This document shows positions 6,567 through 55,000 of a stretch of 55,000 bases of DNA, one piece after another. The position numbers and the translations under genes are program-made. The notes below the pieces were generated by a model. It worked only from the letters and a program-made list of their open reading frames with translations, was not told the DNA's origin and did no database searches. The DNA is from an uncultured Pelagibacteraceae bacterium (GTDB lineage Bacteria; Pseudomonadota; Alphaproteobacteria; Pelagibacterales; Pelagibacteraceae), in the NCBI GenBank assembly GCA_902535155.1, contig CACASB010000003.1, forward strand, positions 1 to 55,000, written 5' to 3'. The number at the start of each line of letters is the position of its first letter. Within the stretch, counting starts at the first letter, position 1.

Positions 6567-7244
6567 ATGATTAAAATTGGAATACCTAGCAAAGGAAGAT
6601 TGCGAAAAAATATTCTAAGTATTTTTTCAAAAAATAAACTAATGCTTACATCTGAAAGAGGTGAAAGAGACTTGTTTGGTTATATAAAAGGCTTCAAGAA
6701 TGTAAATATCAATTACCTTCATGCAAGAGAAATAATAGAAAGATTAGGAGACGGTTCTTTAGATTTTGGCTTTTCTGGATATGACTTGCTTAAAGAAAGT
6801 GAGCTAAATATTCAAAAAAAGATAACAGTAAAAAAAAAATATAATTTTGGATATGCAAAGTTAGTAGTTGCAATTCCTGATGAGTGGATTGATGTTCAAA
6901 CAATAGCTGATCTTGAAGAGATTGCTTTTGAATTTAAGGATAATAAAAAAACCAGGTTAAGGGTGGCAACAAAGTACCCAAATTTAACAAGAGATTTTTT
7001 ATTTTCCAAAGGAGTTACACAATTTAAACTTGTTAAAAGCTTGGGCGCCACAGAAGTTTATCCTTTCACTGGGTCATCAGAGATAATTTCTGATATTACT
7101 TCAACCGGTGAAACTTTAAAAGCTAATAACCTGAGAGTTTTAAAAGACGGAGAAATTTTAAAATCACAAGCATGTCTTCTAATTTCTAAAAGAGTAAAAA
7201 ATTCTGACAGTTTAAGAAAGGTAATAAATAAACTTTCAAAATAA
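6567..7244 (+). CDS. hisG: ATP phosphoribosyltransferase, short form
   Basis: First enzyme of histidine synthesis: joins ATP and PRPP to phosphoribosyl-ATP. At 225 residues it is the short form, lacking the C-terminal regulatory domain of long HisG, which fits the hisZ gene directly upstream. Visible motifs are the N-terminal IGIPSKGRL, LDFGFSGYDLL, RVATKYPNLTRDF and the PRPP-binding region GATEVYPFTGSSEIISDI. The start ATG follows the hisZ stop without a gap. One base separates its stop from that of the convergent DNA methyltransferase, marking the edge between the core his cluster and the accessory block. Confidence 0.95.
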   Translation: MIKIGIPSKGRLRKNILSIFSKNKLMLTSERGERDLFGYIKGFKNVNINYLHAREIIERLGDGSLDFGFSGYDLLKESELNIQKKITVKKKYNFGYAKLVVAIPDEWIDVQTIADLEEIAFEFKDNKKTRLRVATKYPNLTRDFLFSKGVTQFKLVKSLGATEVYPFTGSSEIISDITSTGETLKANNLRVLKDGEILKSQACLLISKRVKNSDSLRKVINKLSK

Positions 7245-7245
7245 T

Positions 7246-8424
7246 TTATTCCTCAAAATCAAAATATCCCTGAACTGCTTCCTTACCAGTAAAATATAAA
7301 TCCTTTCCATTCGCTTTGATCATCCACTCATGATGATAAGAAATTCTTTGTTCTCTTTTCTTCAAAGCATCTTTAACAGCAATCATTATTTTTTTTGCAC
7401 CCTCTACCGGTACTGCCATCCCAATTTGTCTTCTTATAGATTCTTTGCCACCACAAAAGTTATAATCATCGGGAAATGTCTGTAGTCTTGCTCTTTCTCT
7501 ATTCGTTAATGCTCTTGGTTCCTCATAATGGTATACATGAGTTCCTCCACCTCCGCTACCTGTGACAGTATAAGACGGTTCATTTCTATTTAACCTTTTG
7601 TAAATATGGCTCATTCGAGCCTTAGTTACACCTGGCAAACCATCTTCGTCATTTCCCAAATCCCAAACGTTTTTACCCTCAGCTGTTTTTTTTAATCGTC
7701 TTACAACTCTTTCATCATGATTTGTAAGTTCCTGATGTTCTGCCCACTTGGGAATATTTGCTAATCCTTGCTCACAATTAATGATATTTTGTTTTTTTGG
7801 CTTTTGATAGCTAATGTTGTTTTCTTTAAATATATCATCCCTGAAACCAACTAAAATAATCCTATGACGTTTTTGAGGAACTCCATATTCCTCAAATTTA
7901 TAATTATCTGCATAAATTCTATATCCATGTTTTGAGCAACCAGCCAAGTCTTTCATAATTTTTTTAAAGTTCATATAATTTCTATTCCTTAATTCTCCTG
8001 CAAATTCTTTTTTAACAAGACTAGGGTGTTTTTTATTATTCTTGAATTTTTTACCAATAGAGGTAACGTTTTCTGCAACAAAAAATTCTGGCTCAAAATA
8101 ATCTAATACTTTACAAGCGTATGTATAAAGTCCCCCATAATCTCCCTCCATTTTCTTTTTTTTACCAACAAGACTAAAATCATTGCACGGAAAACCAAAA
8201 AGCAAACCATTAATGTTTCCATACTCACTTTTTATTTTTTTAAGGTTATTTTTACGGGTAAATTTATTTACACCAGTAGCAAATACCGGACATTTTTGAT
8301 TTTTTTCAAATGTTTTACAAGAATCTTCGTGGTCATCATTACCCCATATATGACTAAAACCTGCCTGCCTTGCTCCTTCTCCAAAACCTCCAGCTCCACA
8401 AAATAATTCACCAATCTTAAACAT
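7246..8424 (-). CDS. DNA (cytosine-5) methyltransferase
   Basis: 392-residue C5 cytosine methyltransferase that transfers methyl from SAM to cytosine in a specific DNA site. Motif I LFCGAGGFGEG (residues 7-17) binds SAM; motif IV GFPCNDFS carries catalytic Cys80; motif VI is ENV (118-120); motif VIII QKRHRIILVGFR; motifs IX/X appear around RALTNRERARLQTFPD and QIGMAVPV. The variable region between VIII and IX, with ARMSHIYKRLNRNEPSYT, should set sequence specificity, which cannot be read from the sequence. Upstream is a purine-rich SD (AAAGGAAAG) 13 bases before ATG. It is transcribed away from a plus-strand unit with a GHKL ATPase and a Vsr-like nuclease; together they look like a restriction-modification system. 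Confidence 0.95.
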   Translation of the reverse strand: MFKIGELFCGAGGFGEGARQAGFSHIWGNDDHEDSCKTFEKNQKCPVFATGVNKFTRKNNLKKIKSEYGNINGLLFGFPCNDFSLVGKKKKMEGDYGGLYTYACKVLDYFEPEFFVAENVTSIGKKFKNNKKHPSLVKKEFAGELRNRNYMNFKKIMKDLAGCSKHGYRIYADNYKFEEYGVPQKRHRIILVGFRDDIFKENNISYQKPKKQNIINCEQGLANIPKWAEHQELTNHDERVVRRLKKTAEGKNVWDLGNDEDGLPGVTKARMSHIYKRLNRNEPSYTVTGSGGGGTHVYHYEEPRALTNRERARLQTFPDDYNFCGGKESIRRQIGMAVPVEGAKKIMIAVKDALKKREQRISYHHEWMIKANGKDLYFTGKEAVQGYFDFEE

Positions 8425-8446
8425 TTTGTTGACTTTCCTTTCTATT

Positions 8447-8460
8447 TATTGTATACAATA
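8447..8460. promoter_or_regulatory. 14-bp palindromic operator candidate
   Basis: TATTGTATACAATA is a perfect 14-bp palindrome in the 96-bp gap between the divergent methyltransferase and 102-aa genes. It would overlap the methyltransferase promoter. The direct repeat AATACATA occurs at 8457-8464 and 8470-8477. Such symmetry is typical for autoregulation in restriction-modification loci; the binding protein is unknown. Confidence 0.45.
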
Positions 8461-8480
8461 CATATACCAAATACATACTA

Positions 8481-8509
8481 TTGACAAGTATATTAATTTG
8501 TGATATAAC
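8481..8509 (+). promoter_or_regulatory. Sigma-70 promoter for the plus-strand accessory unit
   Basis: Perfect -35 TTGACA (8481-8486), 17-bp spacer, -10 TATAAC (8504-8509). Transcription would begin about 8515-8517, only a few bases before ATG 8521, so the first gene would be read from a nearly leaderless mRNA. This is one of the best consensus promoters in the window. Confidence 0.7.
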
Positions 8510-8520
8510 ATTAGAAAATT

Positions 8521-8829
8521 ATGGAAAATAAATTGAAAATAGTTGAATTGAGAGGCAAAAGGGAAAAAACAAAAAATTGGCCACCAGAAAAAAAATTTAA
8601 AATTTTTTCCTCGATCAGAGTTCCTAAACTTTTAAGGGCTCTTAGAAGTGTTCAAAACCTATCAACAATCTATAATCCAAAGACAAAAATTGGTTACAGA
8701 TACAGCGATGAAGAAAAAAAGAAAATACTAAAAGATGTAAGAGAGGCATATCAATCAATGACTAGAGCATGGGATAATGCTGGGAAAAAAATTAAAGAAA
8801 ATAATAAAAGATCATATTGGGATGAATAA
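8521..8829 (+). CDS. Unknown 102-aa basic protein
   Basis: Not recognised. The product is short, lysine- and arginine-rich and without hydrophobic segments, so probably cytoplasmic and perhaps nucleic-acid binding. Residues 30-45 (SIRVPKLLRALRSVQN) and 58-85 look helical; the tail KKIKENNKRSYWDE is charged. It is driven by a strong divergent promoter shared with the methyltransferase region, and lies 244 bp before the ATPase operon. A controller or regulator of the system is possible from position only; no helix-turn-helix is obvious. Codon use resembles the neighbourhood. Confidence 0.6.
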   Translation: MENKLKIVELRGKREKTKNWPPEKKFKIFSSIRVPKLLRALRSVQNLSTIYNPKTKIGYRYSDEEKKKILKDVREAYQSMTRAWDNAGKKIKENNKRSYWDE

Positions 8830-8850
8830 AATCATAAAATTTCACGAATT

Positions 8851-8936
8851 GATGCACGTTATAAAGAGGAGGTTGTCATACACGGTGAGCAACAACATCG
8901 ATAGAACACTTATAATACCTCTCGCCAGAGTGCATC
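8851..8936 (+). ncRNA. Nested-helix structured element, candidate RNA
   Basis: Three nested helices can form: outer 7 bp GATGCAC/GTGCATC (8851-8857 with 8930-8936), middle 5 bp AGAGG/CCTCT (8865-8869 with 8918-8922), inner 5 bp GTTGT/ACAAC (8872-8876 with 8892-8896). The stretch is visibly richer in G and C than the flanking genes, and neither strand holds a convincing protein. Direction is assumed from the flanking unit. No known RNA family was recognised; it may be a leader element of the ATPase operon or a separate small RNA. Confidence 0.35.
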
Positions 8937-8993
8937 CTGGTTTTGTCTTATGTTCGTGTTCAAACGTTGCAATTAGCAAGTTAACTATGCAAA

Positions 8994-9052
8994 TTTTAAT
9001 GCGTACAAAGCTACACCTTTGTTCCTTTCTATGTAGCTTGTACGCGTTAAAA
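8994..9052 (+). promoter_or_regulatory. Long hairpin with loop complementary to the next ribosome binding site
   Basis: Arms 8994-9015 and 9032-9052 pair over about 21 positions with one bulged A and one G-U pair; the core is GCGTACAAAGCTACA against TGTAGCTTGTACGC. The apical loop starts with CCTTTGT (9016-9022), the exact complement of ACAAAGG at 9060-9066, which contains the Shine-Dalgarno of the gene starting at TTG 9074. The loop part CTTTGT can alternatively pair with ACAAAG at 9005-9010. This is what a pseudoknot-type translational switch would look like. No U tract follows, so it is not a standard terminator. Confidence 0.5.
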
Positions 9053-9073
9053 AACAACCACAAAGGAGTTTAA

Positions 9074-9352
9074 TTGAAAAAAGATTATTTCCATTCTTGT
9101 TTACAGGATAGATTGCAATACGCTCAAGAATTTGCAAAGGATTACATTATATATTTACAAAGCGTTGAATTTACAAAAAAAGCAGAATTAGAGTTTTATA
9201 AAAATAATAGAATATTATTTTTAATAAATAAAATCCTTAATTTACCAACTAACACACTTAAACTTATCAAAATTTTAAAAAGCAGGTTTATTTTAAGCAA
9301 ATGCTTAAATGAAATCGAGGTTATTAAAAAAGAATTAAAAAATTATGAATAA
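9074..9352 (+). CDS. Unknown 92-aa helical protein
   Basis: Not recognised. TTG start with a strong Shine-Dalgarno, AAGGAG, five bases upstream; this clear RBS is rare in the window and supports the start. The product is rich in Lys, Leu, Ile and predicted mostly helical from composition, with no signal peptide. It is the first gene of a tight cluster: its stop overlaps the GHKL ATPase start by 8 nt, so the two are translationally coupled. Expression may be controlled by the hairpin immediately upstream. It could be a small partner of the ATPase. Confidence 0.65.
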   Translation: MKKDYFHSCLQDRLQYAQEFAKDYIIYLQSVEFTKKAELEFYKNNRILFLINKILNLPTNTLKLIKILKSRFILSKCLNEIEVIKKELKNYE

Positions 9353-11498
9353 ACTTATTAGACAAATAATTAAAAGCTTTACATGGGTTGCCGGTCCTGT
9401 TGGCGAAGGGGATGAACCGGGGGATTCAAAACCACAAGATAAATTTAATGCTTTAAGTTGTGTTTTAGAATTTATACAAAATGCCTTAGATGCTATAGCA
9501 AAATCTTTCTCAAATGCTCTAATTAAAATTCATGCTACTAGGGTTTCATATAAAAGTTTTAAGGAAAATTTTTTAAAAGATAAATTTGAAGATTATCTTG
9601 AAAATTCTGAACTTTCTGCAATGCAAAAAATACCAGAACATGGACAAGATATAAATTGCCTAATAATGGAAGATTTTAATACAACAGGTCTATTAGGCGA
9701 TCCAAATCATTATTTTTCAAAATTACCAAACGGCCAACCTAATTTGATACATCAGTTTACACACGAGATAGGTGGTAGAAGAAAAGGTAAAGCTGCTCAT
9801 TTAGGAGGAAGCGAAGGGGAAGGCAAACAAACTTTTTGTCTAAGTTCTGATATTTCAACTTTCTTCTTTTTCACAGTTAGAGATGATGGAACAGAATTCT
9901 TCATGGGAATTTCATATTTTGGTATATTTGAACTGAATGGAACAGAATATAAGCCTTTCGTTCATTTTGGTGACAAAGTTGAAAGTAGAGATTATAAAGG
10001 AAAATTTTGGGCTCTTCCAATAGATAATCAGGCAAAAATTGATGAACTCAAAAAAATTTTTGGAGTAAAAAGAAAAAAAGAACCTGGATTAACAGTAGTA
10101 ATCCCTTTTATTAATGAAGATGTTACTCTTGATAAAGTAAAAGAAACAATTTGTAAAAATTACAGAGTTCCAATTTTAAGAAAAAAATTAAGAGTTGAGG
10201 TTTCTAAAGGAAAAGAAATTAATCATGAAACTTTACTTGAAGTTTATAAAGAAAAATATTCTGAAAATGAAACTGATAAGAAAATGATAGAAGAATATTT
10301 TAATTTTATTGACGAAATTGATAACAATAATGTAAAAAATTTTGATTTAAGCATAGTCCCTCAAAGACCAACTGTTTTAGATGTTTCTTCTAATTTAACT
10401 GATGAAATACAAAATTTATATAAAGAAGGCAAAACAATTAAATATCAATTAAAATTTACTCTTGCAAAAAAAGTTCTTAAAGATGGTAAGCTTACCGATC
10501 AATATAAAGATGTTAATTGTGTATTTAATTTTTATGTAAAAAAATTTCCTGATTACGCAAATCAACAATATAAGTATTGTGACACAGTACGTGGAGATAT
10601 GCCTATTACACAATGTCGTAAAAGAACAACCAATTTCTTTTTTGCAGATATTCAAGATAAAGAGTCTATGTTGCTTGTAAAAAACGGAGAGGTCGCAAAT
10701 CATACAAGAGTAAGAATAGATCATCCAAAATATAAAGTATTTTACAAACACAACGTTCAAAGACCATACATTTCATTTTTGAATAATGCTTTTATGTCCT
10801 TACAGGATTTATTAAGTCAAAGCGGAGATACTTTGGATGAAAAAACCACTCTAGATTTATGCTCAATAATTTCTGACAAAGAAATAGAAAATGAAAATCA
10901 TGGAGAGGAAGATGATGAAGATCAAGACGATGATATTCTTAGTTCAAAATATAAGTTACCCGAAATTCCTAATAAGCTAAAAGCGTATAGAGCAAGAGTG
11001 AAAAAAGAAAATGATAAAATTTATTGGATTGCCAAAGGTGTAAAATATAAGAAAGAGGATATAGCGAGATATGAAGAACAAGGTGAATTATTTATTAAAG
11101 AAGCAAATAAATTACTCAATGAAAGAAAAGATAAATTACCAAAAAAACATGTTCAAAAGATTAATCAGGGCATAATGTCAACAAATAATAGATTAACTGA
11201 ATTTGAGGAATTTAGAAAAAATAACTATACTTTTTATCCAATAAAGATCCGTATAACTGCAGCATATGATGATGGTACTACAAGACCATACAATAGCTAT
11301 TGCGAGGAAGATTTTGATTTTAGTGACACTAAAACTTTCAAGTATAATGTTCATGGATCACTCAATATCGTCAAGAATGATAAGAATAAGATTGTCTGCG
11401 CGGCTTCAAAAGAAGATTTTGATTTTTCAATAACTGGTTTTGGAAAAGAATCTGAGGAAAAATTTATGATACACCACATGTATGAAAGAGAGAGCTAG
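9345..11498 (+). CDS. GHKL-type (MutL/MORC-like) ATPase of a restriction system
   Basis: 717-residue protein with the Bergerat ATP-binding fold. N box EFIQNALDA at 42-50 (Glu42, Asn46, Asp49); G1-type box EDFNTTGL at 109-116; lid with GGSEGEGKQTF at 154-164. A region near VVIPFINEDV would end the S5-like second domain. The ~450-residue remainder shows no recognised domain; it has an acidic run near residues 520-530 and charged coiled-coil-prone stretches. Related GHKL ATPases accompany C5 methylases and Vsr-fold nucleases in certain restriction systems, where they are thought to drive DNA translocation or clamping. Here the same partners flank it. It overlaps the 92-aa gene by 8 nt and the next gene by 1 nt. 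Confidence 0.8.
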   Translation: MNKLIRQIIKSFTWVAGPVGEGDEPGDSKPQDKFNALSCVLEFIQNALDAIAKSFSNALIKIHATRVSYKSFKENFLKDKFEDYLENSELSAMQKIPEHGQDINCLIMEDFNTTGLLGDPNHYFSKLPNGQPNLIHQFTHEIGGRRKGKAAHLGGSEGEGKQTFCLSSDISTFFFFTVRDDGTEFFMGISYFGIFELNGTEYKPFVHFGDKVESRDYKGKFWALPIDNQAKIDELKKIFGVKRKKEPGLTVVIPFINEDVTLDKVKETICKNYRVPILRKKLRVEVSKGKEINHETLLEVYKEKYSENETDKKMIEEYFNFIDEIDNNNVKNFDLSIVPQRPTVLDVSSNLTDEIQNLYKEGKTIKYQLKFTLAKKVLKDGKLTDQYKDVNCVFNFYVKKFPDYANQQYKYCDTVRGDMPITQCRKRTTNFFFADIQDKESMLLVKNGEVANHTRVRIDHPKYKVFYKHNVQRPYISFLNNAFMSLQDLLSQSGDTLDEKTTLDLCSIISDKEIENENHGEEDDEDQDDDILSSKYKLPEIPNKLKAYRARVKKENDKIYWIAKGVKYKKEDIARYEEQGELFIKEANKLLNERKDKLPKKHVQKINQGIMSTNNRLTEFEEFRKNNYTFYPIKIRITAAYDDGTTRPYNSYCEEDFDFSDTKTFKYNVHGSLNIVKNDKNKIVCAASKEDFDFSITGFGKESEEKFMIHHMYERES

Positions 11499-12385
11499 TG
11501 TCCAAGAACACCATAACAATTTTTGACGAGGAGAGAATTACACATAAAGGTGAAAATCCTGATGTAAAAGTTTTGTTAGATAAAATTTCTAATGATGGAA
11601 TACATATTAAAACAGAAGTTAATTTAAAAAGACATAATTTTGATGATGATTGTGAAGTTTTTTTTCAAGCTTACAATTATAGAGGTGCTGGGTTAAAGCC
11701 ATGGAACTTGGGGAGTATAAAAACCTTAAATAAAGAAGAAAGTAATATCTTCTCCTATTTCGTACCCAACATTGATAAAGAAGCTATAAGATTTAATCTC
11801 TTTGTCTCTAAAAAAGGTAAATTTAAAGATATAAATGTTAATAGAATAATTGGTAGATCAAAGATTAGAGAATTTTATGATGAACCAGATGACGGAAAAG
11901 ATGGAAATTATAAAACAGAATCATTATTGCCAACAAGAGAGGATGATATTGGAACAGCTTTTAAAGTAGAAATGAACCCAAGTAGTAAGCCAATCTTAGT
12001 TTTAAAAAGAGGATGCAACATTAAACATAAGTTGGATAATAATATAGACCCTATACAAAAAACGCTGATTTATACAGCTGCTCTTAGAGAATTATTAAAA
12101 ACATATTTAACAGATAATAGATATGAAGACTGTCCTTGGAAGTCAAAATGGTTTGAGGAAATAAAGAAAAAGTTAGGTGATCCTGAAATTACCACTCCAG
12201 AGTCATTGTTAATTTTTGATAATGGAGAAGCTGAAACTAATCCTGAAGCTGAGCAGTGGATTGAAGATGTTGTAAATATTTTTGTAAGTAATTTGATAGA
12301 TGCCTCAGGAAAAAAGCTTATTGATAAATTTATTTCACATAACAATTTTGTTCGAACTAGTGATCTAGAGGAAAGTGAAATATGA
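11498..12385 (+). CDS. Unknown 295-aa protein of the ATPase operon
   Basis: Not recognised. GTG start overlaps the last base of the ATPase stop codon (TAGTG). The protein is soluble, acidic overall, without signal peptide or hydrophobic segments. The N-terminal half (about 1-115) alternates short strands, with FFQAYNYRGAGLKPWNLGS and VPNIDKEAIRFNLFVSKKG; the C-terminal half is more helical (PIQKTLIYTAALRELLKTYL onward). Its fixed place between a GHKL ATPase and a Vsr-like nuclease suggests a structural or target-recognition subunit, but that is inference from position alone. Confidence 0.75.
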   Translation: MSKNTITIFDEERITHKGENPDVKVLLDKISNDGIHIKTEVNLKRHNFDDDCEVFFQAYNYRGAGLKPWNLGSIKTLNKEESNIFSYFVPNIDKEAIRFNLFVSKKGKFKDINVNRIIGRSKIREFYDEPDDGKDGNYKTESLLPTREDDIGTAFKVEMNPSSKPILVLKRGCNIKHKLDNNIDPIQKTLIYTAALRELLKTYLTDNRYEDCPWKSKWFEEIKKKLGDPEITTPESLLIFDNGEAETNPEAEQWIEDVVNIFVSNLIDASGKKLIDKFISHNNFVRTSDLEESEI

Positions 12386-13158
12386 AATTAAGAAGATTTA
12401 CTGAGGATGGTCATAATAAATATATTTTATTATATGATAAAATTAAAGACTCAATCATAAAGCAAAAAGGAGATATTAAAAAAGGATTTACAAAAAAACT
12501 AAAAGACGAAGTTGAAAATTTGATGAATAATAATTCATCTAGCACTGAGGTTGACTCTGGCAAAAATTTAAAAAAACAAAAATTTAAAGATTCATATGAT
12601 CTTGGAATATATTTAAATGATATTTTAAAAGAGTGTAATCAAACTGAAATTTATTTTGATGAAAAAATGTGGGATTGGATAACATTATTTCATTTTGATG
12701 TTGTATTTAGTGAGGAAATGAGTGGATACTCAGAGCATAGATATATTTTAAGTCAGGATTGGTTTGTAAGAAACAGGCACCTAATCAGGACCCCATGGTA
12801 TGCAGTAAGTACTTATGGAGAGTCAGCAAAATTATTTTTGTCTAAAGCGCCATATGTTGGTTCAGATTATCTAGAACAATTTATTAGCCATAGAATTAAT
12901 GAAAATTTTACTTCAAGTGGACATATTGCTTATAATCTTTATTTTGATAAAAAAAATGAAAAACCAAGACCAGGTTATTCAAAAAAGTTTATTAGAAAAA
13001 AAAATAAAAAAACTTTGGTCAAAGCATCTTTAGGAAGATTGATTGATAAATTAAATCAATATAATGAAATTTATGATATCTGGTCAATGGATCCAAATGA
13101 TATAGTTTTACTACTGCCAAAAGAATTTGAAGAACTTAAAAATTTAAATGATAAATAG
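12382..13158 (+). CDS. Unknown 258-aa protein of the ATPase operon
   Basis: Not firmly recognised. ATGA overlap with the previous gene. Features: N-terminal MKLRRFTEDGHNKY, a charged linker with Asn/Ser repeats (50-60), then a conserved-looking core with WDWITLFHFDVVF, SEHRYILSQDWFVRNRHLIR and YLEQFISHRIN. The paired aromatic and histidine-arginine pattern (HRY ... RNRHLIR) resembles a family of restriction-system partners I cannot name with certainty. Cytoplasmic, no membrane segment. The Vsr gene starts 11 nt before its end. A role in DNA recognition or nuclease assembly is a guess from context. Confidence 0.75.
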   Translation: MKLRRFTEDGHNKYILLYDKIKDSIIKQKGDIKKGFTKKLKDEVENLMNNNSSSTEVDSGKNLKKQKFKDSYDLGIYLNDILKECNQTEIYFDEKMWDWITLFHFDVVFSEEMSGYSEHRYILSQDWFVRNRHLIRTPWYAVSTYGESAKLFLSKAPYVGSDYLEQFISHRINENFTSSGHIAYNLYFDKKNEKPRPGYSKKFIRKKNKKTLVKASLGRLIDKLNQYNEIYDIWSMDPNDIVLLLPKEFEELKNLNDK

Positions 13159-13534
13159 AAATTTTAATACTAAATCAAAAAATACTAAGCCAGAAAAATT
13201 AATAAGATCTATGTTATATAAAAATGGTTATAGATTTAGAATTCATGTAAAAAAACTTCCAGGGAAACCAGATATCGTTCTTTATAAACATAAAACAATT
13301 TTAAATGTTCACGGTTGCTATTGGCACTATCACGGTTGCGCCTATAGCAATATACCCAAAACAAAAACTCAATATTGGATAGAAAAATTAGAGCTTAATA
13401 AGAAAAGAGATTTTATTAATAAAGATAGATTAAAAAAATTAGGTTGGAAAGTAATTGATGTATGGGAGTGTACTTTAAAAAGAAAGAATATTGATAAAAC
13501 TTTTAACACTCTAGAACGTCTAATCATTGCCTAA
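13148..13534 (+). CDS. Vsr-like endonuclease
   Basis: 128-residue endonuclease of the Vsr fold, a PD-(D/E)XK relative. Catalytic residues expected from E. coli Vsr are present: Asp42 in LPGKPD, His55 in VHGCYW and His60. All four zinc ligands are kept: Cys57, His62, Cys64 and Cys108 (VWEC). The position of E. coli Thr63 is Val54. Classical Vsr nicks T:G mismatches arising from m5C deamination; in operons with a GHKL ATPase and C5 methylase, Vsr-fold enzymes have been proposed as the restriction nuclease. Both fit here. It is shorter than E. coli Vsr (156 aa) at the N-terminus. Start overlaps the upstream gene by 11 nt. Confidence 0.9.
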   Translation: MINRNFNTKSKNTKPEKLIRSMLYKNGYRFRIHVKKLPGKPDIVLYKHKTILNVHGCYWHYHGCAYSNIPKTKTQYWIEKLELNKKRDFINKDRLKKLGWKVIDVWECTLKRKNIDKTFNTLERLIIA

Positions 13535-13550
13535 AGATATATATCAAATA

Positions 13551-13817
13551 ATGGACAAAAATTACTTAATGGAGATGAAACTATCTGAACTTAAAACAGA
13601 AACCCAAAAAGAAGTTTTCTTTAGATACCTATCTATTGCAGAGCATTACATTTCAACTGAGAATGAAAAAGAAGCTGAGAAGATTTTAAAAAATTTGGGC
13701 TATAATAAAAAAACAATTAAGTCATTCATAAAAACTGTTCAAAATCATGTTGCTTCAGAATTTCAAGAAATGAAAGAAATTATGATGGGCAGGGTTCCAA
13801 AAAGATTATTAAATTGA
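13551..13817 (+). CDS. Unknown 88-aa helical protein
   Basis: Not recognised. ATG 13551 is preferred; a TTG at 13527 inside the vsr end would add eight residues. The product appears all-helical and charged, with KLSELKTETQKEVFFRYL and EAEKILKNLGYNKKTIKSF, the second resembling a small helical hairpin. No signal peptide. It follows vsr by 16 bp and overlaps the next start (TGATG), so it may be either the last gene of the accessory operon or the first of the following core set. Its function is unknown. Confidence 0.6.
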   Translation: MDKNYLMEMKLSELKTETQKEVFFRYLSIAEHYISTENEKEAEKILKNLGYNKKTIKSFIKTVQNHVASEFQEMKEIMMGRVPKRLLN

Positions 13818-14026
13818 TGCTAATTTTTAATTACAAATCAAAAAAAGAACTTAAGGAAAATATAGGAAAACCCCTTAATTACACTGAGACAAGTATATTT
13901 GGACCAGAGTATAAGGAAAGTGGAGTGATAGTCGGTAGCAACAGACCTTATTCAACAGCAAATAAAGGACGTGAATTTTTTGCAGAAGTAACAATAAAAA
14001 ATAACATAATCATAAAAGTAAATTGA
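13817..14026 (+). CDS. Unknown 69-aa conserved-looking protein
   Basis: Small soluble protein with a compact beta-rich pattern: IGKPLNYTETSIFGPEYKES, then GSNRPYS and REFFAEVTIKNNIIIKV at the C-terminus. I recall similar small proteins in alphaproteobacteria but no function. ATG 13817 overlaps the previous stop as TGATG; the TTG one codon earlier is less likely. The strong codon pattern and distinct hydrophobic spacing argue for a real gene. rmuC begins 42 bp downstream. Confidence 0.65.
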   Translation: MLIFNYKSKKELKENIGKPLNYTETSIFGPEYKESGVIVGSNRPYSTANKGREFFAEVTIKNNIIIKVN

Positions 14027-14068: not shown

Positions 14069-15169
14069 ATGGATACAATTTTAATAATAATTTTGGGTTT
14101 ATTGCTTATAGCAACTTTGGCTATTCTTTATTTAAATATTAAGTCAAAGACAAAAAAGGAAGATGAAAATAAAGAGGCTGAGGAAATAGCAAATTTGAAT
14201 GCAGAAATCATAAAACTAAAAGATAGTTTAAATGCAACAATTAATACTTCATTAAGTTCTATGTCTACTTCATTTAACGCTCTATCAACTGGAGTTACTA
14301 AAGATATGACCGAGGCTTTGACTAAAGTTGATGAAAAAGTTGGAAATTTTAATCAACAGGTTCAATTGTTAAATCAAAGCCAAGAAGGAATTACAAAAAT
14401 TCTAGCTGGCGTTAAGAAATACGGCGTTTTGGCTGAGAGCAGCCTTGATGCTTTGATGAGAGATTTGCTTCCAGCAAGTCAATTTACGACTAATGTAAAA
14501 ATGAAAGAAGATACAAGTGAGAATGTAGAATTTGCTATAAAACTTCAAGGAGATGTTTTGGTGCCTGTGGACTCACATTTCCCAGTCGAAAAGTTTAAAG
14601 CTATCACAGATGCTCATGAGGCAGATGATAAAAAAGCAGTCGCTGAAGCTAGAGCAAAATTAGCCAGTGCTTTTAGATTGAAAGCAAAAAGTGTTAATGA
14701 AAAATATATTGTTCCACCAAAAACAACTGATTTTGCCATAGTCTATGCTGCCTCAGAAAGTCTTTATAGAGAATTAACTGAATACCAAGATCCAAGCTCA
14801 AAAGAATTACTTACTCAAGAATTAATGAGAAAATATAAAATAGTTATTTGTGGTCCTAATACTCTTTCAGCTTACTTACAATCGCTACATATGGGTTTTC
14901 AATCATTAAAGGTTCAAAAAGGAGCAGTAGAAATTTATAATCATCTAAAAACAATTAGTACAAGATTTGCTAAGCATTTTGACAATGTAATAGTTTTAAG
15001 AAAAAAACTAGATGAAGCAATGAGTGTTGTTGATAAGTTTGGAACTGATGCTAGATCAATTACTAGAACTTTAGAAAACATAAAAGATCCCGAACAAGTT
15101 GAATTGTCTTTAAAAAATGAGAATGTAGAGAGATTAAATATTACAACTTCCAAGCAGGCAAAAAATTAA
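14069..15169 (+). CDS. rmuC: RmuC family DNA recombination protein
   Basis: RmuC-family proteins limit inversions and rearrangements; the core is a PD-(D/E)XK nuclease-like fold. The 366-residue protein has an N-terminal membrane helix (residues 3-24), a coiled-coil region (about 30-120) and the family core with GVLAESSLDALMRDLLP, LVPVDSHFPVEKF and YIVPPKTTDFAIVYAASESLY. Overall length is short of E. coli RmuC (475 aa) but usual for alphaproteobacteria. A perfect Shine-Dalgarno, AAGGAGGT, lies at 14047-14054, 14 bases before this ATG and only 5 bases before an in-frame ATA at 14060, so the true start may be noncanonical. Confidence 0.92.
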   Translation: MDTILIIILGLLLIATLAILYLNIKSKTKKEDENKEAEEIANLNAEIIKLKDSLNATINTSLSSMSTSFNALSTGVTKDMTEALTKVDEKVGNFNQQVQLLNQSQEGITKILAGVKKYGVLAESSLDALMRDLLPASQFTTNVKMKEDTSENVEFAIKLQGDVLVPVDSHFPVEKFKAITDAHEADDKKAVAEARAKLASAFRLKAKSVNEKYIVPPKTTDFAIVYAASESLYRELTEYQDPSSKELLTQELMRKYKIVICGPNTLSAYLQSLHMGFQSLKVQKGAVEIYNHLKTISTRFAKHFDNVIVLRKKLDEAMSVVDKFGTDARSITRTLENIKDPEQVELSLKNENVERLNITTSKQAKN

Positions 15170-15203
15170 TTTAAAAATTTTTGATAACTTTATAAATAAA
15201 ATA

Positions 15204-15887
15204 ATGCGCTGGAATTCAAAATTTTTATACCCCAAATCAACAAGATCCTTAGTCAATGGCTCTAGACATTATTCCTTGGATGGATCAAGCTTACCATCTG
15301 TTACAACGATTTTATCAGCTACTAAAAGTGAGGAGGACAAAGCTGCTATTCTTGCTTGGAAACAAAGGGTAGGTAATGTTGAAGCAGAAAGAATTAAGAA
15401 AGAGGCCTCAGCCAGAGGGAGTTCAATGCATTCTTATATAGAGCAGTTTTTATATGGAAAATTAAATCAAGAATTACTAGAGGATAACAATAAATCTAAA
15501 AAAATGGCAGAAGAAATTATTGATAATGGTTTAAAAAATAAATTGCTAGAGGTATGGGGGGCTGAAGCCACAATATATTATCCTGGTAAATATGCAGGCA
15601 CTGCAGACTGTATAGGAGTTTACGAAGGCAAAGAGTCAATTCTAGATTTTAAACAGAGCAATAAACCAAAAAAAGAGGAATACATAGAGGATTACTTTTT
15701 ACAAATTGGGGCTTATTCTCTAGCTCACAATACTGTTTACAATTCTAATATTACACAAGGTGTAATTTTATTGTGTACTGTAGATAGATTGTTTCAGGAT
15801 TTTAAAATTGAAGGCAACGAACTAATAAATTTTCAAAACAAATTTCTTGAGAGAGTTGAAAAATTTTATCACTTAATAAACAAATAA
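15204..15887 (+). CDS. PD-(D/E)XK exonuclease, MGME1/phage-exonuclease-like
   Basis: 227-residue protein resembling mitochondrial genome maintenance exonuclease and phage recombination exonucleases. The helix ARGSSMHSYIEQFLYG gives the RecB-like G..H motif; the catalytic core is YAGTADCIGVYEGKESILDFKQ, with Asp in GTADC and D-x-K in LDFKQ; then DYFLQIGAYSLAHN contains the Q..AY motif of RecB-type nucleases. It probably degrades single-stranded DNA ends. It follows rmuC and precedes exonuclease I, giving a run of DNA-processing genes. Whether it is ancestral or phage-derived is not decided by the sequence. Confidence 0.85.
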   Translation: MRWNSKFLYPKSTRSLVNGSRHYSLDGSSLPSVTTILSATKSEEDKAAILAWKQRVGNVEAERIKKEASARGSSMHSYIEQFLYGKLNQELLEDNNKSKKMAEEIIDNGLKNKLLEVWGAEATIYYPGKYAGTADCIGVYEGKESILDFKQSNKPKKEEYIEDYFLQIGAYSLAHNTVYNSNITQGVILLCTVDRLFQDFKIEGNELINFQNKFLERVEKFYHLINK

Positions 15888-15985
15888 TTATTTGACTTTA
15901 CTTAAAATTAATATACTTAAAACTTACTTGCTACTTGTTTAGATGCGAGCCTTCACACCTTCCAATTAGCATTAAATTATAAATT

Positions 15986-17416
15986 ATGAACATAGTAATT
16001 TGGGATATAGAATCTTCAAGCTCTAGTACAGATTTTGGAAGTATTATTGAAATAGGTGGAATTTTAGTAGATGAAAACTTAGTAGAAAAAGAAAGATTCA
16101 ATTTAAGGTGTAGACTTCCAGAAGGAGAAATTCCCCAATGTATGGCTCTTCTTGTTAACAAAACTGATGTTAAAATGCTAACAAAAGCAAATCTAAGTCA
16201 TTATCAAATGTTATCTCAAGTTGAGATGATTTTTAAAAAGTGGAGCCCAGCTATATTCTTAGGTTGGTCCAATATAGGTTTTGACGATGAAATGATCAGA
16301 AAAGAGTTCTTCAAAGGATTAAGATATCCATACATTACAAATTCATCCCCAAACAAAAGACATGATGGTTTAAATATTGCTCGAGGAGCGTTTGCTTTAA
16401 ATAATAAAATTTTAAAAACTGAGACCAATCAAAAAGGGAATGCTGTAATGAAGCTAGAATCTTTAGCTAGGATGAACGGTTTTGAGACTAAAGGAGCTCA
16501 TAGCGCCTTGTTTGATGCAGAACTTACCCATAAAGTTCTAGGTTTAATAAAGAACAAACAACAAGACACATGGGGTAATTTTTTAAAGACTTCAAATAAG
16601 CTTGATACAGAAACAATAATAAAAAAAGAGAAGATTATTACTCTTAATGAGTACTTTTACGGAAAATCAAGACTTTATCTTTGTGCGCCTCTTCATCCAA
16701 AATTTTGTATTCATCCAATATATCAATGGGGGCAGGCTGTAGACCTTAGAGTTAACGTTGAGCCCCTTTTAAAAATGTCTATCAACGAACTAAAATCGGA
16801 GATGAAAAAAACACCAAAATTTTTAAGAACTATTAGGTCAAATAAAGCACCAATAATAATAGGTAAAGAGTATGGCATGAAGGTTGAACCTTATAGTGCT
16901 ATGGATGTTTCTTTAATAAATAAAAGAGCAGAACTTGTAAACACAAATGAAAAATTTTCTGAGAATATCTTAACTGCATTAAGAGAAATTGCCGAGGAAA
17001 AAGAACAGTCAAAATCTCAAGAAGATATAGAGCCAGAGGAAAGTATTTACGTAAAATTTACCCCTAACAAAGATACTAATTTATTTCAAAAATGGCATGA
17101 AGCACCATGGAATGACAAATTAAGATTACTAGATAAATTCGAAGATCAAAGAATGGTTGGATTCGGAAAAAAAATAATATTTCAAGAAGCTCCCCATGTA
17201 TTACCAGAGTCTATGTTAAAAAAAATCAAGATGGAAATTGCTAAACGAATATTAAGTGAAAAAAAGGAAAAATGGTGGACATGTAAAGAATTTTATCATG
17301 AGTGTGACAATCTGAGAGATAAATTTACTAATGAAGGCAATGAGCTAAATTTAAAGTTTCTCGATCAATTAAATAATTACGTAATGTCAATTGAAAAAAA
17401 ATATAAAAATATTTGA
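15986..17416 (+). CDS. sbcB: Exodeoxyribonuclease I
   Basis: 3'-to-5' single-strand DNA exonuclease used in recombination and mismatch repair. The 476-residue length equals that of E. coli ExoI (475). DEDDh residues are seen: D-x-E in IVIWDIESSS near the start, GWSNIGFDDEMIRKEFF for the second Asp, and AHSALFDAELTHK for His and last Asp. The ExoI-specific middle domain is recognisable at APLHPKFCIHPIY and PIIIGKEYGM. Its presence in a small genome next to rmuC and another exonuclease suggests a local DNA-repair module. A start upstream is excluded by stops. Confidence 0.88.
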   Translation: MNIVIWDIESSSSSTDFGSIIEIGGILVDENLVEKERFNLRCRLPEGEIPQCMALLVNKTDVKMLTKANLSHYQMLSQVEMIFKKWSPAIFLGWSNIGFDDEMIRKEFFKGLRYPYITNSSPNKRHDGLNIARGAFALNNKILKTETNQKGNAVMKLESLARMNGFETKGAHSALFDAELTHKVLGLIKNKQQDTWGNFLKTSNKLDTETIIKKEKIITLNEYFYGKSRLYLCAPLHPKFCIHPIYQWGQAVDLRVNVEPLLKMSINELKSEMKKTPKFLRTIRSNKAPIIIGKEYGMKVEPYSAMDVSLINKRAELVNTNEKFSENILTALREIAEEKEQSKSQEDIEPEESIYVKFTPNKDTNLFQKWHEAPWNDKLRLLDKFEDQRMVGFGKKIIFQEAPHVLPESMLKKIKMEIAKRILSEKKEKWWTCKEFYHECDNLRDKFTNEGNELNLKFLDQLNNYVMSIEKKYKNI

Positions 17417-36551: not shown

Positions 36552-36556
36552 AAAAT

Positions 36557-36642
36557 GGGGCTAATCAGGTGGTGTTACCATGAACTCCCCTAGGCTTGAA
36601 AAAGAGCAAGGGTAATGAGTATTTTCCAGGTTGGTTAGTCCC
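36557..36642 (+). ncRNA. ffs: SRP RNA (4.5S, bacterial small type)
   Basis: About 86-nt hairpin RNA, scaffold of the signal recognition particle with Ffh. Closing stem GGGGCTAA pairs with TTAGTCCC. The alphaproteobacterial signature GTGTTACC, TGAACTCCCC and AGCAAGGGTAA is present in order. The apical part aligns with the standard CCAGGCCCGGAAGGGAGCAAGG pattern, with the CCC/GGG stem replaced by CTT/AAG and the loop by GAAA, a compensatory change that keeps pairing. Upstream of dnaX, the usual place in alphaproteobacteria. Its 3' end is only six bases before the dnaX ATG. Confidence 0.9.
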
Positions 36643-36648
36643 TATAAA

Positions 36649-38325
36649 ATGAATAAAAATAATAAAGTATTAGCCATAAAATATCGGCCTCAAGTTTTTG
36701 ATGAGTTGGTTGGCCAAAGCATAATTGTTCAAGCAATAACAAAATCAATTTCATTAAATAAAATCCCAAATGCCTTTCTATTTACTGGTATAAGAGGTGT
36801 TGGGAAAACTACAATCGCTAGAATTTTAGCAAAGTCCCTAAATTGCGTAGATCCTAATAAAAATGATTGTCTAAAAAATGAATGTAACAACTGCAAACAA
36901 ATAGCTGAGTCCAGGCACATTGATGTTCTAGAAATGGATGCTGCTAGCAAAACAGGTGTGGACGACGTGAGAGATCTAATTGAATTTTCAAGATATGGAC
37001 CAACATCATCCAAATATAAGATATTTATAATTGACGAGGTTCACATGCTCAGCAAGCAAGCATTTAATGCCTTACTAAAAACTCTAGAAGAACCACCCAA
37101 ATATTTAAAATTTATTTTTGCAACCACTGAAGTTAACAAAATACCAATAACTGTGCTCTCAAGATGTCAAAGATTTGATTTAATGAGAATAAGTTTCGAT
37201 GAACTCCTTAATTTTTTAAAAAAGGTAACCGCATTAGAAAAAAAAAATTTAGATGAAAAAATACTTAAACTTATTGTAAAAATGTCGGAAGGTTCTGTCA
37301 GAGACTCTTTGTCTTTACTCGACAGAATATTATTAAATGAAAAAGAAGATGGTAGCAAGATAGATTTAAAATTTGCCCAGGAAATCTTTGGTTATTTTGA
37401 TAAAAATTACATAATAGATCTTATTTTTGAATTGTTAAAAGCTAATGAGGAAAAAGTTTTAGAATTGTACAGGAAAATATATAATCAAGGAATAGAACCA
37501 AAAATATTTATCAACAGTTTTCTTGAAATAATTTACATTTTAAAAAATCACAAAAATTTAAGTGACTTAAATTCAGCATCAGATTTTACAGATGCTGACT
37601 TTAAAAGAATAAAAGATTTATCAAATAAAGTCGATAATAAAACAATCATATTATTTTGGGAGTTTTGTATAAATATGTTAAAAGAAATTAATTTAGTAAA
37701 AAACCAACATTTGGCTGTTGAAATGTTTTTAATTAGATTGATGTACTTAAAAGAAGAGTCGTTAAGTGAGATAAAAAAAATAGACCACATTAATTATTCC
37801 AAGAATGAAGAAAATAATGAAATAGAGTCAGAAGATCATAAAAAAAAAATAAAAAATGAAAATAATAATCAAACTGTAAATCAAATTAAATTTTCTTCAC
37901 AGGAGCAGCAAAAAGTTTCTTTAGATGAAAAAAAATTAACTAATAAAATAAAAATTGATTCTTTCTCCGACTTAATATCGATCTGCATGTTAAATAAAGA
38001 GATTGAATTGAAATACGAATTAGAACATAATGTTAATTTAATTAGTTTTAAGCATAACAATATAGAAATTTCTTTTAATGAAAACCTCAATAAAAATTTT
38101 ATTAAAAACTTAACTTCTAAATTATTAGATTGGACTGGAGAACGATGGATAATATTATTATCAAAAAAAACTGGATTTAAAACAATAAAGGAATTGAAAA
38201 ATCAAAATAAAAATGATGATTTGGCGAGCCTAAAAGACTCTAATTCATATAAAAAAGCTATTAAATTGTTTCCAGATTTGGAGATTACTAAAATTAAAGA
38301 TTTAGAGGAGGAAAGCAATGAATGA
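36649..38325 (+). CDS. dnaX: DNA polymerase III subunit tau/gamma
   Basis: Clamp loader ATPase of the replisome. 558 residues from ATG 36649; the upstream TTG at 36631 lies inside the SRP RNA and is rejected. Motifs: Walker A GIRGVGKTT, zinc-binding cysteines in NDCLKNECNNCKQ, Walker B IIDEVHMLS, sensor 1 FATTEVNKIP and SRC box. The C-terminal third is low-complexity, Lys/Asn/Glu-rich, then a tau-like end. No obvious frameshift site to make gamma was checked in full. ybaB overlaps its end by 8 nt. Confidence 0.95.
   Translation: MNKNNKVLAIKYRPQVFDELVGQSIIVQAITKSISLNKIPNAFLFTGIRGVGKTTIARILAKSLNCVDPNKNDCLKNECNNCKQIAESRHIDVLEMDAASKTGVDDVRDLIEFSRYGPTSSKYKIFIIDEVHMLSKQAFNALLKTLEEPPKYLKFIFATTEVNKIPITVLSRCQRFDLMRISFDELLNFLKKVTALEKKNLDEKILKLIVKMSEGSVRDSLSLLDRILLNEKEDGSKIDLKFAQEIFGYFDKNYIIDLIFELLKANEEKVLELYRKIYNQGIEPKIFINSFLEIIYILKNHKNLSDLNSASDFTDADFKRIKDLSNKVDNKTIILFWEFCINMLKEINLVKNQHLAVEMFLIRLMYLKEESLSEIKKIDHINYSKNEENNEIESEDHKKKIKNENNNQTVNQIKFSSQEQQKVSLDEKKLTNKIKIDSFSDLISICMLNKEIELKYELEHNVNLISFKHNNIEISFNENLNKNFIKNLTSKLLDWTGERWIILLSKKTGFKTIKELKNQNKNDDLASLKDSNSYKKAIKLFPDLEITKIKDLEEESNE

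Positions 38326-53899: not shown

Positions 53900-55000
<1,101 letters not shown>

What the first reader, a model, noticed from the sequence alone, without database searches (positions are those of the whole stretch)
7246..13534. Candidate defence system: C5 methylase + GHKL ATPase + two unknown proteins + Vsr-fold nuclease
Seen: a complete C5 methylase on the minus strand, and on the plus strand a tightly overlapping run of a 92-aa protein, a GHKL ATPase (N box, G1 box, lid all present), a 295-aa and a 258-aa unknown protein and a Vsr with all catalytic and zinc residues. Overlaps are 8, 1, 4 and 11 nt. Known: GHKL ATPases of the MutL/MORC class have been described next to C5 methylases and Vsr-like nucleases in restriction systems. 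Inferred: the five genes form one system in which Vsr is the nuclease and the ATPase drives it. No Z1 helicase is present, so the composition may be a distinct subtype. Finding such a system in a streamlined SAR11 genome is unexpected.
Basis: partly seen in the sequence, partly recalled or inferred. Interest (0 to 1): 0.85.

Follow-up and report, generated by a model that had tools for sequence, protein, structure and literature searches.

The report
Swappable defence locus in SAR11
A marine SAR11 bacterium carries a compact, probably virus-fighting gene island in which the DNA-marking and DNA-nicking genes stay constant while a three-gene ATPase module between them is swapped wholesale between strains.

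Summary
All five genes are real and lie where stated. The island (about 7246-14026) sits between hisG and rmuC; in 6 of 8 inspected SAR11 genomes lacking it, rmuC directly follows hisG. ATPase and Vsr occur in the same 6 of 397 SAR11-order genomes. DNMT, Vsr and ATPase-X-Y recur together, in different gene orders, at 12 of 12 intact close relatives outside SAR11. So the association is real.

It looks like two units, not one. ATPase, X and Y co-evolve (distance correlations 0.95-1.00). Vsr tracks the methylase (0.59-0.87) more than the ATPase (0.19-0.30), and ATPase-X-Y also occurs without Vsr. In SAR11 the ATPase-X-Y block and the 102-aa gene are each exchanged cleanly and independently between constant flanks, in cells without detectable MutL or MutS.

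Best reading: an anti-phage island pairing a methylase-Vsr unit with an exchangeable GHKL module acting on unmarked or phage-altered DNA. Vsr as the ATPase-driven nuclease is unproven and disfavoured. It is a new variant of the paraMORC / Z1 / PDC-M33 kind. No function was tested.

The parts
7246..8424 (-). C5 cytosine DNA methyltransferase (DNMT), divergent from the rest
   Evidence: Pfam 5.7e-56, TIGR00675 145 bits; next to the ATPase module in 13 of 13 Pelagibacteraceae loci
8521..8829 (+). P102, small conserved companion of the ATPase module; exchangeable slot 1
   Evidence: Own HMM finds it in 13 of 13 Pelagibacteraceae loci and 11 of 12 intact non-SAR11 close loci; three allele types at the hisG site
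8846..9050 (.). Conserved noncoding stretch with a strong terminal hairpin; unknown role (RNA, attenuator or recombination handle)
   Evidence: Aligned in 10 loci, fold z -3.0, no codon-position bias; covariation weak
9074..9352 (+). P92, small protein seen only in Pelagibacteraceae loci
   Evidence: 72-93% identical among 9 of the 10 hisG-site copies, L028 42-45%; absent in L042 and L023
9345..11498 (+). GHKL-type ATPase, PDC-M33A-like; exchangeable slot 2
   Evidence: Invariant motif residues in 23 relatives; 21 of 23 match PDC-M33A; window scored 65.4 bits but not by hmmscan
11498..12385 (+). X, Ig/FnIII-like N-terminal sandwich plus helical part; slot 2
   Evidence: Model pLDDT 79.1, pTM 0.48; Z about 10 for residues 11-126; co-evolves with the ATPase
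12382..13158 (+). Y, mostly helical protein; slot 2
   Evidence: Model pLDDT 92.7; no convincing structural match; co-evolves with the ATPase
13148..13534 (+). Vsr-type endonuclease lacking the N-terminal segment of the non-SAR11 relatives
   Evidence: TIGR00632 121.3 bits; alignment of 25
13527..13817 (+). P96, island gene of unknown function
   Evidence: In 2 of 59 genus genomes, both carrying the island
13814..14026 (+). P70, island gene of unknown function
   Evidence: Kept next to P96 at the 9 hisG-site loci compared with the window that reach it; absent in the 6 empty sites
6567..7244 (+). hisG, left chromosomal flank
   Evidence: TIGR00070 176 bits; empty-site comparison
14069..15169 (+). 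rmuC, right chromosomal flank and recombination handle
   Evidence: Pfam RmuC 9e-47; directly after hisG in 6 of 8 genomes without the island

Best explanation
It is a mobile anti-phage island made of two functional units plus accessories. Unit 1 (DNMT and Vsr) marks host DNA with 5-methylcytosine at one motif and keeps a nickase tied to that mark. Unit 2 (ATPase-X-Y, PDC-M33-like) is a three-protein GHKL device in which ATP-driven dimer closure, with X as a binding subunit and Y as helical partner or effector, attacks or silences DNA that is unmarked or otherwise phage-altered. P102 is a small companion in its own exchangeable slot. In SAR11, unit 2 and P102 are each replaced wholesale by homologous recombination through the constant segments (DNMT; noncoding stretch with P92; Vsr to rmuC). 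Shown: gene content, insertion site, co-occurrence, two co-evolving blocks, clean and independent swaps, no MutL or MutS found in the genomes tested. Inferred: defence function, ATP use, that the methyl mark is the same across types, what unit 2 recognises, and that methylation restrains it.
For: Same 6 of 397 genomes for ATPase and Vsr. DNMT, Vsr, X and Y at 12 of 12 intact non-SAR11 close loci, P102 at 11 of 12, order variable. hisG directly followed by rmuC in 6 of 8 non-carriers. ATPase-X-Y correlations 0.95-1.00, DNMT-Vsr 0.59-0.87. Swap edges at 9352-9357 and 13136-13175 (ATPase-X-Y) and 8416-8421 and 8834-8846 (P102). All four combinations of two P102 types with two ATPase types exist. 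DNMT columns just before motif IX 91-96% conserved across types. PDC-M33A matches 21 of 23 ATPases. MutL 0 of 11 over cut-off and MutS 0 of 11 SAR11 genomes.
Against: No function was tested. The GHKL call rests on motifs. The link of unit 2 to the methyl mark rests on co-location; most Bacillota copies have no methylase nearby (2 of 8 do). The perfect ATPase-Vsr co-occurrence in SAR11 fits a single system equally well. hmmscan does not match the window ATPase to PDC-M33A. X is not shown to be homologous to PDC-M33B-type proteins (probability 1.9). DNMT and Vsr may co-vary through host descent in SAR11 (hisG-DNMT 0.66, hisG-Vsr 0.40) or through adjacency elsewhere; ATPase-Vsr is weakly positive (0.19-0.30, p 0.03-0.09). 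The part of the DNMT just after motif VIII is only 54-79% conserved, so a constant recognition motif is not certain.
Confidence: 0.5

Rival explanations
1. One reading: one restriction system in which Vsr is the restricting nuclease and the GHKL ATPase, with X and Y, activates or loads it on unmethylated DNA.
For: ATPase and Vsr in the same 6 of 397 genomes; Vsr overlaps Y by 11 nt; Vsr is the only recognised nuclease in the window island; MutL with ATP stimulates gonococcal Vsr (PMC6116569, passages); a Vsr-like protein causes an SOS response when the cognate methylation is missing in Caulobacter (PMC12907096, abstract and passages).
Against: Vsr follows DNMT rather than the ATPase in distance; ATPase types 20-35% alike share near-identical Vsr proteins (84-100%); ATPase-X-Y exists without Vsr in 7 of 8 Bacillota loci and 2 of 7 other Pseudomonadota survey loci.
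Confidence: 0.2
2. ATPase-X-Y is a stand-alone three-gene defence system (PDC-M33), and DNMT-Vsr is an unrelated methylase-repair pair that only shares the island.
For: Triple without DNMT in 6 of 8 Bacillota loci and next to AIPR on an Enterococcus plasmid; separate co-evolution.
Against: Recurrent co-location with DNMT and Vsr at 12 of 12 intact non-SAR11 close loci in several gene orders; same 6 of 397 SAR11-order genomes.
Confidence: 0.15
3. Repair, not defence: the ATPase triple replaces MutL as the partner of Vsr in very-short-patch repair in cells without mismatch repair.
For: No MutL over cut-off and no MutS in 11 SAR11 genomes; Vsr and DNMT present; MutL-Vsr precedent.
Against: Outside SAR11 the triple occurs in genomes that do have MutL (5 of 5 tested); it occurs without Vsr; it is patchy and swapped between strains, unlike a housekeeping repair gene.
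Confidence: 0.07
4. Selfish addiction: DNMT-Vsr is a self-stabilising pair (loss of methylation lets Vsr damage the genome), and the other genes are passengers.
For: Caulobacter ScmA-VsrA precedent; DNMT-Vsr co-evolution.
Against: ATPase-X-Y and P102 recur with the pair in distant taxa, too regular for passengers.
Confidence: 0.08

Closest known systems
paraMORC-containing restriction operons (Iyer, Abhiman, Aravind 2008, PMC2292703; parts 1-3 of 4 of the text read, figures not available)
   Same: GHKL ATPase near C5 methylases and Vsr-like nucleases; a minority of MORC neighbourhoods without helicase; Candidatus Pelagibacter named in the neighbourhood figure legend; hotspot-like mobility proposed
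   Different: Membership in a named paraMORC family was not tested; X, Y and P102 are not identifiable in the text read; no module swapping described there
PDC-M33 (PADLOC-DB v2 candidate with A, B and C models)
   Same: 21 of 23 aligned ATPases match PDC-M33A; L078 matches A, B and C in order
   Different: Window X and Y match no model; DNMT, Vsr and P102 carry no PDC-M33 label in the calls made; no paper in the library holds the name
Putative Z1 / PD-(D/E)XK / cytosine-methylase system, Type I (PMC9523054, section 11 read)
   Same: Cytosine methylase plus three further genes, associated with DNA repair endonucleases; L083 and L084 here carry Z1 + DUF4420 + ATPase + two genes + DNMT + Vsr
   Different: The window lacks both the Z1 and the PD-(D/E)XK core protein; identity of their three extra genes with ATPase-X-Y is my inference
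mzaABCDE (validated system as cited in PMC9523054; its make-up otherwise recalled)
   Same: L083's Z1 and DUF4420 proteins match MzaC and MzaD
   Different: No Mza model matched the window ATPase, X or Y
HEF_HK / Response_reg_2 pair (PMC8011034, passages)
   Same: GHKL protein near C5 methylase and Vsr
   Different: No PF19191 or PF19192 match in the ten island proteins
VcSduA, Shedu protein with GHKL domain (PMC12137116, passages)
   Same: GHKL ATPase hypothesised to control a nuclease in a tested anti-phage protein
   Different: Single protein with a Shedu nuclease domain; none here

Membership tests
Type II restriction-modification system | Intact DNA methylase | tested here: met
   Pfam 5.7e-56; TIGR00675 145.1 against 100.65 bits
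Type II restriction-modification system | Cognate endonuclease cutting the unmethylated motif | tested here: inconclusive
   Only Vsr is recognised; EcoRII-C enzymes sit beside DNMT-Vsr in L032 and L033 but not in the window; X and Y unknown
Vsr endonuclease | TIGR00632 above cut-off, core residues kept | tested here: met
   121.3 against 97.85 bits; alignment of 25; catalytic and zinc roles recalled
Vsr endonuclease | N-terminal segment (RSxxM region) of typical relatives | tested here: not met
   Absent in 10 of 10 SAR11 rows aligned, present in 15 of 15 other rows; L023 has an unrelated N-terminus and L029 was called from a late start. Whether this segment defines the family is open
GHKL ATPase | N-box, G1, G2 residues conserved | tested here: met
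   Invariant in 23 of 23; motif meaning recalled
GHKL ATPase | Match to a curated GHKL model | tested here: not met
   None for the window; 1 of 23 relatives at E 0.011
PDC-M33 | ATPase matches PDC-M33A | tested here: inconclusive
   hmmscan none for the window, 21 of 23 in the alignment yes; the genome search scores the window at 65.4 bits; discrepancy not resolved
PDC-M33 | Downstream genes match PDC-M33B and C | tested here: not met
   Window X and Y none; profile comparison with the B/C-position proteins of 7 distant loci: X probability 1.9, Y 40
Z1 / PD-(D/E)XK / methylase system (PMC9523054) | Z1 protein and PD-(D/E)XK protein | tested here: not met
   No such match among the ten island proteins; present in L083 and L084
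MZA | Mza protein matches | tested here: not met
   None for the window ATPase, X or Y
paraMORC / MORC | S5 domain and family motifs | not tested
Anti-phage defence system | Protects against phage | not testable with these tools
   No experiment possible

The most novel reading that the evidence does not exclude
A two-slot exchangeable immune locus: a constant methylase-Vsr unit and constant recombination handles (DNMT, the noncoding stretch with P92, Vsr to rmuC) hold two interchangeable cassettes, P102 and the GHKL triple ATPase-X-Y. SAR11 cells, which lack the MutS/MutL barrier to recombination between diverged sequences, re-equip themselves by swapping whole defence cores while keeping the same DNA mark.
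Probability: 0.4. Interest if true: 0.75.

Novelty: new variant of a known kind. Interest (0 to 1): 0.6.

Why it matters
SAR11 is among the most abundant bacterial groups in the ocean and has streamlined genomes (general knowledge). A locus that keeps one DNA-marking gene and swaps whole GHKL-based cores would be a concrete mechanism of rapid immune turnover there. It also makes two open questions testable: what PDC-M33-type ATPase triples do, and what a Vsr nuclease does in a cell without MutL and MutS. The finding that Vsr follows the methylase and not the ATPase changes which experiment should come first.

Tried and rejected
Viral or plasmid origin: two scans of viral contigs with the ATPase and tblastn against 50,697 phage records gave no relative; plasmids gave one.

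Known fold for Y: Foldseek against PDB and BFVD, and VIA-align, gave nothing convincing. For X the matches cover the N-terminal sandwich, a common fold. These absences do not show new folds, and no nuclease fold in the lists is not evidence that there is none.

MutL relationship: only the N-box aligned.

Stretch 8846-9050 as a protein: the 98-aa ORF there varies about equally at the three codon positions (23, 28 and 28 of 72 each, nine sequences), so it was rejected as coding. As a known RNA: two sub-threshold chance-like Rfam rows and none there at the gathering score. Covariation is weak (term +0.51; 8 of 52 pairs with two-sided changes), so an RNA structure is not proven. A promoter scan found no more than shuffles give; one terminator-like site at 8924-8941.

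Neighbourhood counts: the first tables missed Vsr in L037 and L083, Y in L036, and P102 in L037 and L038 because of greedy ORF calling; the count was redone in six frames. The Fisher value 0.026 for Vsr with DNMT used the early count; it is C(8,6)/C(15,6) = 28/5005 = 0.0056 (worked by hand, DNMT counted if within about 5 kb). P102 and Vsr are not clearly linked in that survey (P102 in L079, L080, L081, L105, L107; both in three; not tested further).

Literature: nine listings. No description of module swapping at this locus appeared in the listings; I did not open most listed papers, and only open-licence papers are held.
Full report
OBSERVATION. The five genes are present at the stated coordinates with the stated overlaps. 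Methylase and Vsr are recognised by curated models. The ATPase, the 295-aa protein (X) and the 258-aa protein (Y) of the window match no family above cut-off. The + strand run from 9074 to 14026 is thus seven overlapping genes.

SITE. The island lies between hisG and rmuC. In 8 SAR11 genomes without the system that I inspected, rmuC follows hisG directly in 6; in 2 (L063, L065) other genes follow. P96 is found in 2 of 59 genus genomes, both with the system, so it belongs to the island. G+C across the island (about 27-33%) is like its surroundings.

CO-OCCURRENCE. Of 397 SAR11-order genomes, 6 have the ATPase and the same 6 have a Vsr; 391 have neither (Fisher 1.9e-13; not phylogenetically independent, and one of the six is the window's genome). 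A genome-contig scan with the ATPase alignment gave 27 loci, 12 from Pelagibacteraceae and 15 others; five of the 12 are the same loci as. With the window, DNMT and P102 are beside the ATPase at 13 of 13 Pelagibacteraceae loci and Vsr at 12 of 13; in the thirteenth, L028, the contig ends before Y. Of the 15 others I set aside L039 (contig edge, ATPase in two frames, no other component), L044 (Mammaliicoccus: triple by position, no DNMT, Vsr or P102) and L045 (Haloferax: two ATPases, one DNMT, no Vsr found). At the remaining 12 (alphaproteobacteria, a planctomycete, a Balneolaceae) DNMT, X, Y and Vsr are present in 12 of 12 and P102 in 11 of 12, in several gene orders.

WIDER SURVEY. With the PADLOC model PDC-M33A, 8 of 329 Pseudomonadota genomes match. 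In the seven besides the window, two ORFs of 238-307 aa follow the ATPase in 7 of 7; DNMT is within about 5 kb in 6 of 7 (in L080 one lies about 6.5 kb away) and Vsr in 5 of 7. L083 and L084 also carry Z1 and DUF4420; PADLOC scores those of L083 as MzaC and MzaD. In the phylum of Mammaliicoccus (Bacillota), 8 of 368 match, one being L044's genome. The triple is there by position in 8 of 8, DNMT in 2 of 8, Vsr in 1 of 8, P102 in 2 of 8, within the stretches held. On an Enterococcus plasmid the triple sits beside an AIPR gene, with no DNMT or Vsr in the 13 kb read. So ATPase-X-Y is the separable core, and among these 15 loci Vsr occurs only with a nearby DNMT (6 of 6; 28/5005 = 0.0056, by hand).

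TWO CO-EVOLVING UNITS. In 10 loci at the hisG site (L028 left out; L024 and L025 near-identical), distance matrices correlate 0.99-1.00 among ATPase, X and Y; 0.59 for DNMT-Vsr (p 0.011); 0.30 for ATPase-Vsr (p 0.058); 0.01 for DNMT-ATPase; -0.04 for P102-ATPase; 0.44 for DNMT-P102 (p 0.0012). In a wide set of 17 loci DNMT-Vsr is 0.87 and ATPase-Vsr 0.23 (p 0.034). In 11 non-SAR11 loci DNMT-Vsr is 0.74 (p 0.0002) and ATPase-Vsr 0.19 (p 0.088). Caveats: host descent in SAR11 (hisG-DNMT 0.66, hisG-Vsr 0.40, hisG-ATPase -0.06) and closeness of DNMT and Vsr genes outside SAR11. In SAR11, however, Vsr lies next to Y and still follows DNMT more closely.

MODULE SWAPPING. Among the 11 hisG-site loci, DNMT (67-100%), Vsr (84-100%, 10 loci) and P96 (81-100%, 10 loci) are kept. 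ATPase-X-Y falls into five types (I: window, L019, L020, L022; II: L026; III: L028, L029, L031; IV: L042; V: L024, L025) whose ATPases are 20-35% alike between types, and P102 into three types (A: window, L026, L042; B: L019, L024, L025, L028, L031; C: L020, L022, L029). All four combinations of P102 B and C with ATPase I and III exist (L019, L031, L020, L029), which requires recombination. In nucleotide comparisons of the window with 9 loci, similarity stops at 9352-9357 (9054 in L042, which lacks P92) and resumes at 13136-13175 in the 5 with another ATPase type and a complete locus; for P102 it stops at 8416-8421 and resumes at 8834-8846 in 7 of 9. Between DNMT motifs VIII and IX, where the recognition region should lie (recalled), the columns before motif IX are 91-96% identical across types but those just after motif VIII only 54-79%, so a constant methyl motif is likely, not shown. 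MutL is over cut-off in 0 of 11 SAR11 genomes tested (two weak partial rows at E 9e-4) and MutS found in 0 of 11; the models rang in 14 and 11 of 14 control genomes; the window's genome is 75% complete. PMC12374537 (abstract part and passage) reports mutS and mutL missing from two deep-sea subclades and links missing mismatch repair to promiscuous recombination.

VSR. Core residues are conserved in 25 aligned copies, but the 10 SAR11 rows lack the N-terminal segment that the 15 others have. E. coli Vsr-MutL interaction depends on the Vsr N-terminus (title of a reference in PMC2292703). This fits a Vsr working without MutL. It does not show that this ATPase replaces MutL.

STRUCTURE. Y has a confident, mostly helical model (pLDDT 92.7) without a convincing match. 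X (pLDDT 79.1, pTM 0.48) has an N-terminal Ig/FnIII-like sandwich (Z about 10 over 97-106 residues).

MECHANISM. The most economical reading is an anti-phage island with a marking unit (DNMT-Vsr) and an exchangeable ATPase-X-Y core. Precedents: a GHKL domain hypothesised to control a nuclease in the anti-phage protein VcSduA (PMC12137116, passages); VsrA causing an SOS response when cognate methylation is missing, independent of MutL (PMC12907096, abstract and passages); MutL with ATP stimulating Vsr (PMC6116569, passages).

KNOWN OR NEW. The kind is known: paraMORC restriction neighbourhoods with C5 methylase and Vsr (PMC2292703), the PDC-M33 candidate, and the Z1 / PD-(D/E)XK / methylase system with three extra genes (PMC9523054, section 11). 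What I did not find in the nine literature listings named under Tried and rejected: the Z1-free and DUF4420-free composition with P102, the separation into two co-evolving units, and the independent swapping of two cassettes.

Noticed in passing
window 8846-9050: Conserved noncoding stretch with strong inverted repeats (fold z -3.0) between the two swap slots; of 397 SAR11-order genomes it is found in the window's and 3 others (82-95% identity), all with the island, plus two short 26-30 nt matches. RNA element or recombination handle is open.
   Followed up: partly
window 14069-17416: rmuC, a possible PD-(D/E)XK nuclease (below Pfam cut-off) and an exonuclease-I-like gene follow the island. 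rmuC is 81-96% identical to other hisG-site loci, the last gene 50-53%; similarity blocks often end near 15840-15870.
   Followed up: partly
L063 and L065 (hisG site of two other SAR11 genomes): Other genes follow hisG instead of rmuC: an M16 peptidase with unknown genes, and a methyltransferase-like gene with others. Insertion hotspot or rearrangement.
   Followed up: partly
L045: A Haloferax contig has two ATPases of this family in one region, one near a C5 methylase.
   Followed up: no
L032 2149-3369, L033 14833-16209: EcoRII-C restriction enzymes lie next to DNMT-Vsr beside P102-ATPase-X-Y.
   Followed up: partly
L023 7677-8147 and L026 13735-14214: An extra protein of 156-159 aa lies between Y and Vsr in two loci whose ATPases are 42% alike.
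   Followed up: no
window 53900-55000 and 36553-36650: Start of a 16S rRNA gene, explaining the G+C jump at the window end, and a small SRP RNA.
   Followed up: yes
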